The translations under genes were made by a program, and so were the position numbers. Positions 1 through 34,284 of a stretch of 35,650 nt of DNA are shown here, piece after piece (the first letter of the stretch is position 1; every line of letters begins with the position of its first letter). Location: assembly GCA_001295935.1 (NCBI GenBank), contig LJHX01000096.1, positions 1 through 35,650 of the forward strand, in the 5' to 3' direction. The stretch comes from an alpha proteobacterium AAP81b. Its GTDB lineage: Bacteria > Pseudomonadota > Alphaproteobacteria > Sphingomonadales > Sphingomonadaceae. The notes under the pieces were generated by a model. It saw only the letters and a program-made list of their open reading frames with translations, was not told where the DNA came from and did no database searches.

Positions 1-258
1 CGAAGCGGTCGCCCGAAGGGCGATGACGGCGATTCAACAACCGTGAAAGCCGCTCTAGAGCCGACCCGGCTTTCGCAAGCACCTTCCCCGTCGCTCATAC
101 CGAGCGAAGTCGAGGCACGCCCAGCGGCGGGAGCGTGCTTCGACTTCGCTCGGCATGAGCGGCTGGCGCTTGCTCAGCAAAGGCGAGTTCGGTCCGGAGT
201 CCGGCTGCCACACTGCTTGGCGGAACCGCACAATCCGCATCACAAGCGTCACGATGAA
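1..258. other. Intergenic stretch upstream of pucBA
   Basis: I see no convincing complete gene here. One reading frame enters from the left edge and stops at a TGA at 44-46 after 14 codons. It could be the tail of an upstream gene but is too short to identify. A 7-bp inverted repeat (46-52 with 67-73) follows that stop directly and might end its transcript, though there are only three T residues after it. The palindromic repeat at 93-160 fills most of the rest. Open frames on both strands lack a ribosome-binding site and family resemblance. Confidence 0.5.
93..160. repeat. Palindromic intergenic repeat, copy 1
   Basis: Arms 93-120 and 133-160 are inverted copies matching at 26 of 28 positions around a 12-base loop. 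The core is CCGAGCGAAGTCGAGGCACG and its complement. The same element recurs at 7366-7439 and 34211-34284. This is the most diverged copy: the left arm has ATAC where the others have ATGC, and the right arm has GCTTCG for GCCTCG. It lies about 100 bases upstream of the pucB promoter and would form a long hairpin in RNA. Confidence 0.9.
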
Positions 259-286
259 TTGACACATTGATCTGTTGCGATATTTT
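259..286 (+). promoter_or_regulatory. Probable sigma-70-type promoter of pucBA
   Basis: A consensus -35 hexamer TTGACA (259-264) is followed after 16 bases by TATTTT (281-286), a fair -10. Transcription would start near 293 and give a leader of about 150 nt before pucB. The nine-base string TTGACACAT occurs at 259-267 and again at 285-293. The -10 sits inside the TGT-N12-ACA operator, as expected of a light- and oxygen-repressed antenna promoter. No start-site data were available, so the assignment rests on motif and position. Confidence 0.55.
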
Positions 287-290
287 GACA
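273..290. promoter_or_regulatory. PpsR/CrtJ-type operator
   Basis: A perfect TGT-N12-ACA palindrome (TGT 273-275, ACA 288-290) overlaps the proposed -10 of the pucBA promoter. This is the recognition pattern of PpsR/CrtJ, the aerobic repressor of bacteriochlorophyll, carotenoid and puc genes in purple bacteria. A one-mismatch site (CGT-N12-ACA, 247-264) lies 26 bases upstream, centre to centre. PpsR often binds paired sites. No ppsR gene is in the window. Confidence 0.65.
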
Positions 291-445: not shown

Positions 446-598
446 ATGGAAGACGCAGAAAAAGTCTACCCGACCGGTCTCACGCCCAAGCAGGCGGAAG
501 AGATCCAGGACGGGTTGATGTGGGGGACGCGCATCTATTTCGGGATCGCGATTTTCGCCCATATCCTCGCCTATCTCTATTCACCCTGGCTGCACTAA
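446..598 (+). CDS. pucB: LH2 light-harvesting antenna, beta subunit
   Basis: This 50-residue single-span membrane protein is the beta polypeptide of a peripheral light-harvesting complex. It aligns without gaps to LH2 beta chains from Thr10 to the end: GLT near residue 11, GTR at 27-29, the B850 ligand His39 in AHILA, and the PWLH terminus. Core LH1 beta chains usually lack GTR and end in RPWL or RPWF, so LH2 is favoured. Arg29 matches the arginine that contacts B800 in known structures. Gln21 stands where almost all beta chains have His. The ATG at 446 was chosen because AAGG lies 7 bases upstream and the product then has normal length; an in-frame ATG at 275 would add a tail unlike the family. 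pucA follows after 12 bases. Confidence 0.93.
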   Translation: MEDAEKVYPTGLTPKQAEEIQDGLMWGTRIYFGIAIFAHILAYLYSPWLH

Positions 599-610
599 GG
601 GAGGCCCAGC

Positions 611-781
611 ATGAAAGAAGGACGTATCTGGCTGTATGTCAGCCCCACCGTCGGTCTGCCGCTGTTCTTCCTGGCGTTCATCACCGCGTCGCTGCTGGTG
701 CACGCTTCGATCCTGAGCAACACGACCTGGATGGCAAGCTTCTGGCAGGGTGGCGCCGCCACCGCCGCCAAGGCGCCCTGA
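611..781 (+). CDS. pucA: LH2 light-harvesting antenna, alpha subunit
   Basis: This 56-residue membrane polypeptide pairs with the beta chain to bind the B850 bacteriochlorophyll ring. It aligns without gaps to LH2 alpha chains: GRIWLYVSPTVG at the N-terminus, the ligand His31, TTW at 38-40 and WQGG at 45-48. The N-terminal Met, which ligates B800 in known LH2, is in the usual place. The tuning pair at 44-45 is Phe-Trp; B850 complexes usually have Tyr-Trp or Tyr-Tyr. A GGGAGG ribosome-binding site lies just upstream. The gene is followed by a strong terminator with no pufLM, so this is a stand-alone antenna operon and not the core puf operon. Confidence 0.93.
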   Translation: MKEGRIWLYVSPTVGLPLFFLAFITASLLVHASILSNTTWMASFWQGGAATAAKAP

Positions 782-824
782 CGCCGCGCGGCGCCGCCTC
801 GGCGGCGTCGTTCTGGCCAAGACG

Positions 825-856
825 AGGCCGGGGTCCAGCGATCCCGGCCTTTTTTG
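825..856 (+). terminator. Rho-independent terminator of pucBA
   Basis: A perfect 8-bp stem (AGGCCGGG at 825-832 with CCCGGCCT at 843-850) has a 10-base loop and is followed by a run of T at 850-855. The T-run is on the plus-strand side only, so it serves pucBA. pucC, which is convergent, ends 14 bases further on. Confidence 0.9.
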
Positions 857-869
857 GTGTCCTTGTGCC

Positions 870-2285
870 TCAGCGCCGCGGCCGGACCCCGAGCAACGGC
901 AGCATCGTCGCCAGGGTCACCACCAGCAGCACGATCTCGATGGCATAGACGATGACATAGCCCGTCGCCGCGGGTGGCCAGGGCAGGGCGACCGCCGGCG
1001 CCGCGACATCGCGCAGGAATCCGCCGAGCGCCGCGCCGACTCCCGCCGCTGTCGCCTGCGCCGCGCCCCAGCTGCCGAGCGCCAGCCCGATCTGCTCGCG
1101 TGGTGCGAAGTTCATCGTCGCCGTCAGCGTGCCATGGCCGAACAGCCCGCCGCCGAAACCGATCAGCAGCACACCGAGGACGAACAGCGGCACCAGCTGC
1201 AAGGGCGCGGCGAGAATCACCATCGCGAACGCCGGAATGCCGACCACGGCGCCGATCGTCGCCATGCGGAAGGGATCGAAGCCGCGGGCAAGAATGCGCG
1301 AGGCAAGCGCGAAGCCGAGCAGGCCGCCGCCGGCGAAGGTCGCCGTCAGCTTGGTGGTATCGCCGACGCCGAGCCCGAGGATCTGGCCGCCATAGGGTTC
1401 GAGCAGGATGTCTTCCATGCTGAAGGCCAGCGTGCCCAGCGCGACGGCGACGAGGCGGCGGACGGCATGCGGCTCGGCGGCGTAGAGCGCCCAGCTTTCG
1501 GCGAAGCTGCGGCCGGCTTCGACGCGGCGGCCGGGCGCACGCGCCTCCTGCTTCCACAGCGCCGCGAAGTTGAGCACGAAGGTGATGACCGCGGTCGCCT
1601 GAATGACCTGGATCAGCCGGCCGTGCGAGAAATCGGCGAGCGCCGCGCCGAACAGCAGCGCCGCGGCGATCATGCCGATCAGCAGCATCGAATACATCAG
1701 GCCGACGATATTGGGGTGCGAGGTCTCGGGGGCCTGGTCGGTGGCGAGCGCCAGCCCGACTGTCTGGGTGACATGGACGCCGGCGCCGACGAGGAGAAAG
1801 GCGATGCCGGCGCTGATCTGGCCGATCCACGCCGGCGCGCTGCCCGACTGGCCGGCACCCGCTAGCACCAGCAGCGCGAAGGGCATCATCGCCAGCCCGC
1901 CGAACTGCAACATGGTGCCGCGGAAGATATAGGGCACCCGCCGCCAGCCGAGCGCCGAGACATGGGTATCGGAGCGGAAACCGATCAGCGCGCGGAACGG
2001 CGCGAACAGCAGCGGCAGCGCCAGCATGACGCCGACGAGCGTCGCCGGCACGCCGAGTTCGACGATCATGACGCGATTGAGGGTGCCGACGAGCAGCACC
2101 AGCGAAATGCCGACCGACACCTGGATCAGCGACAGCCGCAGCAGCCGCGACAGCGGCAGGTCCTCGCTGGCGGCGTCGGCGAAGGGCAGGGCGCGGCTGC
2201 CCCAGCTCATCCACATCGACATGATGCCGCGGTTGACGCGGCCCATCGGGCGCGGCGCCGGTCGCGGCTTGCTGGCGTCAGTCAT
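870..2285 (-). CDS. pucC: PucC-family antenna assembly protein (MFS fold)
   Basis: A 471-residue polytopic membrane protein of the bacteriochlorophyll-delivery (BCD/PucC/LhaA) branch of the major facilitator superfamily. These proteins help assemble LH1 or LH2 by handling pigment or antenna subunits. Visible family marks are the N-terminal MSWGSRALPFADAA stretch, the LNRVMIVELGVPA segment after the first membrane span, the GFRSDTHVSALGWRRVPYI loop, and about 12 hydrophobic segments. Length is normal. Because it adjoins pucBA I name it pucC rather than lhaA; the branch cannot be settled by eye. It is convergent to pucBA, unlike the collinear pucBAC of Rhodobacter. A degenerate TGT-N12-GCA at 2353-2370, upstream of its start, may be a weak PpsR site. 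Confidence 0.88.
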   Translation of the reverse strand: MTDASKPRPAPRPMGRVNRGIMSMWMSWGSRALPFADAASEDLPLSRLLRLSLIQVSVGISLVLLVGTLNRVMIVELGVPATLVGVMLALPLLFAPFRALIGFRSDTHVSALGWRRVPYIFRGTMLQFGGLAMMPFALLVLAGAGQSGSAPAWIGQISAGIAFLLVGAGVHVTQTVGLALATDQAPETSHPNIVGLMYSMLLIGMIAAALLFGAALADFSHGRLIQVIQATAVITFVLNFAALWKQEARAPGRRVEAGRSFAESWALYAAEPHAVRRLVAVALGTLAFSMEDILLEPYGGQILGLGVGDTTKLTATFAGGGLLGFALASRILARGFDPFRMATIGAVVGIPAFAMVILAAPLQLVPLFVLGVLLIGFGGGLFGHGTLTATMNFAPREQIGLALGSWGAAQATAAGVGAALGGFLRDVAAPAVALPWPPAATGYVIVYAIEIVLLVVTLATMLPLLGVRPRR

Positions 2286-7365: not shown

Positions 7366-7439
7366 CCCGCTCATGCCGAGCGAAGCCGAGGCATGCCCGC
7401 AAGTCGGCACGTGCCTCGACTTCGCTCGGCATGAGCGGG
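7366..7439. repeat. Palindromic intergenic repeat, copy 2
   Basis: Arms 7366-7395 and 7410-7439 are inverted copies matching at 28 of 30 positions around a 14-base loop. This is the same element as at 93-160 and 34211-34284. It lies between the ends of two convergent genes (stops at 7331 and 7502), so its hairpin may block read-through from both sides. Confidence 0.93.
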
Positions 7440-34210: not shown

Positions 34211-34284
34211 CCGCTCATGCCGAGCGAAGTCGAGGCACGTCAGGGGGCTCACGGGCGTGCCTCGACTTCGCTCGGCATGAGCGG
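34211..34284. repeat. Palindromic intergenic repeat, copy 3
   Basis: Arms 34211-34239 and 34256-34284 are perfect inverted copies (29 of 29) around a 16-base loop. It is the cleanest of the three copies. It lies between convergent genes (stops at 34184 and 34434), as does copy 2. The remaining bases from 34285 to 34433 show nothing recognisable. Confidence 0.95.

What the first reader, a model, noticed from the sequence alone, without database searches (positions are those of the whole stretch)
611..781. LH2 alpha subunit with Phe44-Trp45: predicted blue-shifted B850 absorption
Seen: the alpha chain aligns without gaps to LH2 alpha, with His31, and has Phe44-Trp45. Known: in LH2 the residues at alpha-44 and -45 hydrogen-bond the B850 acetyl groups. 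Tyr at 44 gives about 850 nm, and replacing Tyr44 by Phe in Rhodobacter sphaeroides shifts the band to shorter wavelength; low-light LH3-type antennas lack the tyrosine. Inferred: this is a naturally tuned antenna absorbing between B850 and B820, in a lineage where LH2 is uncommon.
Basis: partly seen in the sequence, partly recalled or inferred. Interest (0 to 1): 0.72.

Follow-up and report, generated by a model that had tools for sequence, protein, structure and literature searches.

The report
Sphingomonad LH2 antenna lacking Tyr44
This is a normal-looking accessory light-harvesting antenna gene pair of an aerobic photosynthetic bacterium whose colour-tuning residue is changed in a way expected to make it absorb slightly bluer light, as some related bacteria are already reported to do.

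Summary
Window 446-598 is pucB and 611-781 is pucA. The alpha chain has His31 and Phe44-Trp45 in gap-free register with solved LH2 alpha chains. The operon looks functional: promoter-like site with overlapping PpsR-type motif, convergent PucC gene, ppsR and puf genes elsewhere in the genome. Trp45 is kept and Phe44 cannot hydrogen-bond, so one of the two B850 acetyl bonds should be lost; published mutants and structures then predict about 825-840 nm. A 2025 review lists 832, 835 and 837 nm peripheral bands for three sphingomonads. A solved LH2 with the same beta type and Phe44-Phe45 has an alpha chain named B-800/814. Phe44 is not peculiar to this genome: 9 of 20 readable same-genus genomes have it, with about 5 Tyr/Phe changes. 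LH2 is rare in the order (17 of 396) but usual in the genus (21 of 24). Less expected: Gln/Asn and Trp at beta(-18)/(-13), where other LH2 sampled have His and Asp, in 33 of 62 pairs. Verdict: a new member of a known kind; no spectrum of this host was available.

The parts
259..286 (+). sigma-70-like promoter, TTGACA-16-TATTTT, upstream of pucB
   Evidence: 10 of 12 matches; 1 found against 0.2 expected in shuffles of 150-900
273..290 (+). PpsR/CrtJ-type motif TGT-N12-ACA overlapping the -10 element
   Evidence: at -173 from pucB; 14 of 22 upstream regions examined hold a TGT-N12-ACA (9 of them between -173 and -255, 5 only at -317 to -336; 8 have none), 1.13 sites expected in all by mononucleotide shuffles; PpsR protein in own genome. 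The motif is recalled knowledge, binding not tested
446..598 (+). pucB, LH2 beta chain, 50 aa: His39 (560-562, B850 ligand by homology), Arg29 (530-532), Gln21 at -18 (506-508), Trp26 at -13 (521-523)
   Evidence: PF00556 2.6e-9; best PDB 9lt4 beta, E 1.2e-19
611..781 (+). pucA, LH2 alpha chain, 56 aa: His31 (701-703), Ser27
   Evidence: (PF00556 7e-11)
740..745 (+). codons of alpha Phe44 (TTC) and Trp45 (TGG), the two positions that donate hydrogen bonds to the B850 acetyl groups in other LH2
   Evidence: function of the positions from PMC8775250 and PMC9618040 (passages)
824..851 (+). intrinsic-terminator-like hairpin after pucA
   Evidence: 1 found, 0.5 expected by chance; weak on its own
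870..2285 (-). PucC/LhaA-family antenna assembly protein, convergent with pucBA
   Evidence: PF03209 1.4e-146; a PucC gene on the opposite strand next to pucBA recurs in 20 of the 21 other regions examined (18 same-genus genomes, G309 and L008; not seen beside pucBA in G021)

Best explanation
pucBA encodes a genuine peripheral LH2 antenna of an aerobic anoxygenic phototroph among the sphingomonads. Alpha and beta chains pair, and the rings assemble with help from the convergent PucC. Alpha-His31 and beta-His39 hold the B850 bacteriochlorophyll pair. Alpha-Trp45 still hydrogen-bonds the C3-acetyl of the alpha-bound B850. Alpha-Phe44 cannot bond the C3-acetyl of the beta-bound B850 of the adjoining unit. 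One of two red-shifting bonds is therefore missing and the long-wave band sits near 825-840 nm (most likely 830-838), which steepens the downhill step to LH1, listed at 862-868 nm in the four sphingomonads compared. Shown here: the genes, the register, residues 44/45, the operon setting, the distribution and the repeated Tyr/Phe change. Inferred: hydrogen-bond pattern, wavelength, expression and benefit.
For: Register and family. Residue rule from others: aY44F = B800-838/839 and Y44F+Y45L = B800-826; nine solved LH2 in which two C3 bonds go with about 850 nm, one with about 825, none with about 800. Relatives: review lists S. limnophila 837/800, E. dokdonensis 835/800, E. ramosum 832/798, against Polymorphobacter FW250 855 shoulder/800. 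Solved LH2 with the same beta type and F44-F45 has an alpha chain named B-800/814. Function: promoter-like site, PpsR-type motif and PpsR; LH1 pair on C101 beside frames that I read as pufLMC and bchXYZ (my reading, no family search of those frames); PucC neighbour conserved.
Against: No spectrum or expression data for this host. The named species with 832-837 nm bands could not be tied to sequences held here, so the F44W45-to-832/837 link is unproven. The 9lt4 label is a name, not a spectrum seen here, and its beta chain is named B-800-850. NCBIfam gives no match for alpha and only a sub-threshold LH1-beta match for beta. Beta-Trp of the PW motif or alpha-Ser43 might supply a substitute bond; P. 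molischianum bonds its beta-B850 acetyl from a beta Trp and absorbs at 846 nm (Table 1 of PMC9618040).
Confidence: 0.8

Rival explanations
1. A substitute donor (the beta-chain Trp of the PW motif, as in P. molischianum, or alpha-Ser43) restores the missing acetyl bond, so the complex absorbs at about 845-850 nm in spite of Phe44.
For: Table 1 of PMC9618040 gives a beta-Trp bond to the beta-B850 acetyl in P. molischianum, B846; the window beta keeps a PW motif and alpha-43 is Ser here.
Against: The PW motif is also present in LH2 beta chains of complexes bonded from Tyr44 and in 9lt4, alpha named B-800/814; in R. sphaeroides nothing replaced Tyr44 (B800-838/839).
Confidence: 0.12
2. The Phe44 state has no adaptive meaning: alpha-44 drifts between Tyr and Phe because either gives a working antenna (a one-base change), and the spectral shift is a tolerated side effect. 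This concerns the why and can hold together with the best explanation.
For: At least 5 changes on the PucC tree of 21 rows, barely fewer than with shuffled labels (mean 7.2; 7% of 300 shuffles at or below 5); PMC11324704 (outline and abstract only) reports that dynamics inside one LH2 ring are robust to natural structural variation.
Against: Only Tyr or Phe is seen at 44 in all 62 readable distinct pairs (a sample drawn by similarity to the window), so the site looks constrained; Rps. acidophila 7050 uses Phe44 in its low-light antenna (PMC8775250 passages).
Confidence: 0.4
3. The antenna is not made: a rarely or never expressed remnant.
For: No expression data; AAP LH2 tends to be produced in low amounts (PMC12654162 passages).
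Against: Intact frames, promoter-like site with PpsR-type motif, ppsR, convergent pucC and puf genes present; homologue kept in 21 of 24 genomes of the genus.
Confidence: 0.08

Closest known systems
PDB 9lt4, LH2 with nine alpha and nine beta chains; alpha named B-800/814, beta named B-800-850 by the depositors (organism not shown by the tool)
   Same: Closest solved beta chain (E 1.2e-19), with Asn/Trp at -18/-13 and Arg at -10; alpha His31 and Phe44
   Different: Has Phe45 where the window keeps Trp45, so it lacks both donor side chains; the window should lie redder than 814 nm
R. sphaeroides LH2 aY44F mutant (B800-838/839)
   Same: Same single loss at alpha-44 (PMC8775250 passages)
   Different: Engineered; alpha-45 is Tyr there and Trp here; its beta has His at -18 (His22)
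Rbl. acidophilus 7050 LH3 (B800-820, PDB 1ijd)
   Same: Phe44 and blue-shifted band
   Different: Leu45 instead of Trp45, and Tyr41 makes a new bond; the window has Met41
LH2/LH3-like antennas of Sandarakinorhabdus limnophila (837/800), Erythrobacter (Porphyrobacter) dokdonensis (835/800), Erythromicrobium ramosum (832/798)
   Same: Sphingomonad aerobic phototrophs with a blue-shifted peripheral band (Table 2 of PMC12654162)
   Different: Their puc sequences could not be identified by name here, so identity of alpha-44/45 is untested

Membership tests
LH2 (PucBA peripheral antenna) | Antenna alpha/beta chains of the PF00556 family, LH2-type rather than LH1-type | tested here: met
   PF00556 on both chains; the 11 best PDB matches of alpha carry LH2-type or uninformative antenna names, LH1 chains follow far below; best PDB match of beta is the 9lt4 LH2; the genome has a separate LH1-like pair on C101. 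Contrary: NCBIfam's only beta match is an LH1-beta model under its cut-off
LH2 (PucBA peripheral antenna) | His ligands for the B850 pair on alpha and beta | tested here: met
   alpha His31 and beta His39 in register with solved chains
LH2 (PucBA peripheral antenna) | N-terminal alpha Met region and beta Arg(-10) of the B800 site | tested here: met
   M-K-E-G-R-I-W start and beta Arg29
LH2 (PucBA peripheral antenna) | Usual but not defining: beta His(-18) at the B800 site | tested here: not met
   Gln21 in the window; Gln/Asn in 33 of 62 distinct pairs with a beta read. Not treated as defining, because the deposited LH2 9lt4 has Asn there
LH2 (PucBA peripheral antenna) | Ring of 8-9 units absorbing near 800 and 820-860 nm | not testable with these tools
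   needs purified complex
LH3 (B800-820 type, F44-L45) | No hydrogen-bonding residue at alpha-44 and alpha-45 | tested here: not met
   Phe44 but Trp45 retained
PpsR-regulated photosynthesis operon | TGT-N12-ACA site at the promoter and a PpsR/CrtJ repressor in the genome | tested here: met
   (sequence only; binding not tested)

The most novel reading that the evidence does not exclude
Sphingomonad-type LH2 form a separate subclass of LH2. (a) The B800 pocket is rebuilt, with beta His(-18) to Gln/Asn and Asp(-13) to Trp changing together in every pair sampled. (b) They often make a half-step antenna, F44 with W45 and a band near 832-838 nm, which is nearly absent from the other LH2 in this sample (11 of 32 against 1 of 29). 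Alpha-44 has been switched between Tyr and Phe repeatedly within one genus, and the puc operon passes between genera, so the group is a ready-made natural series (YW, FW, FF) for reading spectral tuning in one scaffold.
Probability: 0.45. Interest if true: 0.5.

Novelty: new member of a known kind. Interest (0 to 1): 0.36.

Why it matters
The tuning rule itself is established, and blue-shifted bands are already reported in this order, so the single gene is ordinary. What could be useful is the set: within one genus a similar scaffold occurs with YW, FW and FF at 44/45 (11, 6 and 3 of 20 readable genomes). That would let the contribution of each hydrogen bond, and the benefit of a steeper step from LH2 to LH1 in aerobic phototrophs, be measured in nature and not only in engineered mutants. 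The altered B800 pocket suggests that beta His(-18), reported as needed in R. sphaeroides, can be replaced.

Tried and rejected
Tried without result: finding the publication or organism behind PDB 9lt4 (paper searches found none, Foldseek of a single-helix model with mean pLDDT 74.9, matched only 7pbw).

Rejected: a species tree from the longest open frames mixed in wrong reading frames and is not used; the script failed because remembered motifs were wrong; one search replaced them (G018 dropped as too short; G004, G005, G017 and G023 had no RpoB match; G014 and G019 are in the tree but have no LH2 state; 8 of 16 inner branches are open). In one search the simple residue index misreads L046-L048 and L069-L071 (one-residue insertion) and L084; the anchored reading is used. 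The first pattern missed some loci; one search replaced it. An earlier count said 1 of 28 for FW in the His type; the correct count is 1 of 29. The idea that the window is a full LH3 was dropped because Trp45 is kept; the idea that Phe44 is unusual was dropped.

Full report
What is there. The window is contig C204 of a 3.45 Mb genome in 207 contigs, and the genes sit at its left end. pucB (446-598) and pucA (611-781) are intact, each matches PF00556 above its cut-off, and a PucC-family gene (870-2285) faces them on the other strand. NCBIfam gives no match for alpha and, for beta, only an LH1-beta model just under its cut-off (59.1 against 61 bits). A promoter-like TTGACA-16-TATTTT at 259-286 is overlapped by a TGT-N12-ACA motif at 273-290, and a terminator-like hairpin follows pucA at 824-851. 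That TGT-N12-ACA is a PpsR/CrtJ site is recalled knowledge. Such a motif is present within 400 bases upstream of pucB in 14 of 22 regions examined, with 1.13 sites expected in all by mononucleotide shuffling; 9 of the 14 have it between -173 and -255, 5 only at -317 to -336, and 8 regions have none. The genome has a PpsR/CrtJ protein above the curated cut-off (371 against 275 bits). A separate LH1-like pair lies on contig C101 beside open frames that I read as pufL, pufM, pufC and bchX, bchY, bchZ (names from my own reading, no family search of those frames). The setting is that of a working, regulated antenna operon.

Residues. The alpha chain aligns to residues 1-50 of R. sphaeroides LH2 (7pbw) and, in the five alignments printed, to other solved antenna alpha chains without gaps. 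His31, Ser27, Trp40, Phe44 and Trp45 are therefore in LH2 register. In R. sphaeroides, Tyr45 bonds the C3-acetyl of the alpha-bound B850, and Tyr44 bonds a second B850 acetyl, tying one unit to the next; changing Tyr44 to Phe gave B800-838/839, and changing both gave B800-826 (PMC8775250, passages). PMC9618040 (passages) tabulates nine solved complexes and concludes that two C3 bonds go with about 850 nm, one with about 825 and none with about 800; there alpha-Trp45 bonds alpha-B850 and the next alpha-Tyr44 bonds beta-B850. PMC6988754 (passages) assigns about 140-220 cm-1 of red shift to each bond. With Phe44 and Trp45 the window should lose one bond, which gives about 825-840 nm.

Independent phenotype evidence. 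Table 2 of a 2025 review (PMC12654162, passages) lists Sandarakinorhabdus limnophila 865 with 837 and 800 nm, Erythrobacter dokdonensis 862 with 835 and 800, Erythromicrobium ramosum 868 with 832 and 798, and Polymorphobacter sp. FW250 868 with an 855 shoulder and 800. The review calls the first three LH3-like, says most Sphingomonadales lack LH2 genes, and lists other members, such as Sandaracinobacter sibiricus, without a peripheral band. PMC5017807 (passages) reports possible LH2 from an extra band at about 820-850 nm in three river isolates, one of which (S16) falls near Sandarakinorhabdus and Polymorphobacter. None of the review's species could be tied by name to a sequence held here, so the match is suggestive only. 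The strongest calibration is PDB 9lt4: its beta chain is the closest solved relative of the window beta (E 1.2e-19) and shares the unusual pocket pattern, its alpha has Phe44-Phe45, and depositors call the alpha chain B-800/814. This is a chain name, not a spectrum that I saw, and the beta chain of the same entry is named B-800-850. If the alpha name is right, an FW chain of this type should lie between 814 and about 855 nm.

Distribution (own genome included in each count). In the genus, 21 of 24 genomes have LH2. Residues 44/45 are readable in 20: YW 11, FW 6, FF 3 (G005 is interrupted just before residue 44). In the order, 17 of 396 sampled genomes match; in the class, 12 of 385. In one further genus (g36) 10 of 114 match, with 5 FW and 6 FF among 11 copies and no Tyr44. 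Over 63 distinct alpha-beta pairs, a sample drawn by similarity to the window and not random, beta(-18)/beta(-13) is Gln or Asn with Trp in 33 and His with Asp (once Gln) in 29, with no mixture; one pair has no beta read. Readable 44/45: Gln/Asn-Trp type FW 11, YW 11, FF 10 of 32; His type YW 10, FF 9, FL 5, FI 2, FW 1, FV 1, YF 1 of 29. Among F44 chains, Trp45 is kept in 11 of 21 against 1 of 18 (Fisher p 0.002; the rows are related, so this is a description and not a clean test).

History. On the PucC tree (21 rows: 19 of the genus, G309 and L008; G021 has no PucC beside pucBA) alpha-44 needs at least 5 changes; of 1000 bootstrap trees 981 give 5, 10 give 4 and 9 give 6; shuffled labels give 7.2 on average, with 7% of 300 shuffles at 5 or fewer. 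On the RpoB tree, genus only, the count is also 5, with 8 of 16 inner branches unresolved. So the residue flips often and carries weak phylogenetic signal. The window groups with G013 (FF), L008 (FF) and G309 (FW) at 100/100. G309 belongs to another genus: its RpoB is only 80.9% identical to that of the window's genome, but its PucC is 86.8%, whereas G008, G006, G007 and G012 of the same genus have RpoB 89-92% and PucC 64-73% (G013: 93.0 and 86.5). The puc operon has most likely moved between genera. Within the genus, G001 is almost identical to G012 and G003 in RpoB yet only 82.2% to G012 in PucC and in a different PucC clade, which suggests local replacement of the operon.

B800 pocket. PMC8775250 (passages) reports that changing beta-His22, which is position -18, to Ser removed almost all B800 absorption in R. 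sphaeroides. The window has Gln21 there, and Trp26 replaces Asp at -13, while Arg(-10) is kept. Because 9lt4 has Asn at -18 and its chains bear B-800 names, loss of B800 is unlikely; a carboxamide may do the work of His. This is inference.

Judgement. The gene is a new member of a known kind: a sphingomonad LH2 of the half-step type. It is neither an LH3 nor unusual in its own group. The wider pattern (paired pocket changes, repeated Tyr/Phe switching, operon transfer) is the part worth following. I saw no paper describing it in the listings, but the library holds open-licence papers only, no search named the beta-pocket residues, and of the nine papers opened I read passages (PMC12654162, PMC5017807, PMC8775250, PMC9618040, PMC6988754, PMC12210278, PMC8001610, PMC12817894) or the abstract (PMC11324704), none whole; the other listed papers were not opened. 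PMC12210278 was used only for taxonomy background; PMC8001610 and PMC12817894 gave nothing decisive. That the genus is Sandarakinorhabdus/Polymorphobacter-like is my inference and was not shown.

Noticed in passing
window 446-598; puc loci counted: Beta-chain positions -18 and -13 (relative to the B850 His) are Gln/Asn with Trp in 33 distinct pairs and His with Asp (once Gln) in 29; no mixed case in the sample.
   Followed up: partly
L125 (G309) and L008 against window 446-2285: puc operon of another genus (G309) is closer to the window (PucC 86.8%) than its RpoB (80.9%) allows: likely transfer between genera. L008 PucC is 85.9%, but no RpoB was found for its genome.
   Followed up: partly
L106 (G001) against L116 (G012): Nearly identical RpoB but PucC only 82.2% and a different LH2 alpha with a one-residue insertion before the His: likely replacement of the puc operon within the genus.
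   Followed up: partly
window 101-152, 7377-7428, 34221-34274: Three paired inverted copies of CGAGCGAAGTCGA (6 matches with up to 1 mismatch against 0.19 expected): an interspersed palindromic repeat, one pair upstream of the puc promoter.
   Followed up: no
L049 (G005): pucA interrupted by a short direct duplication just before residue 44 in a 75% complete assembly; may be an assembly error.
   Followed up: no
L081 and L084 (G308): One g36 genome carries two LH2 alpha genes on different contigs, both F44-F45; the second resembles the 9lt4 alpha closely by eye.
   Followed up: no
L016: LH2 alpha (YW) on a contig titled Candidatus Eremiobacterota (bog_1492); transfer or mis-binning not examined.
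   Followed up: no
L122 (G021): The only one of 22 regions examined in which no PucC gene was found within about 3 kb of pucBA; this genome's rpoB lies on a second, 574-kb contig.
   Followed up: no
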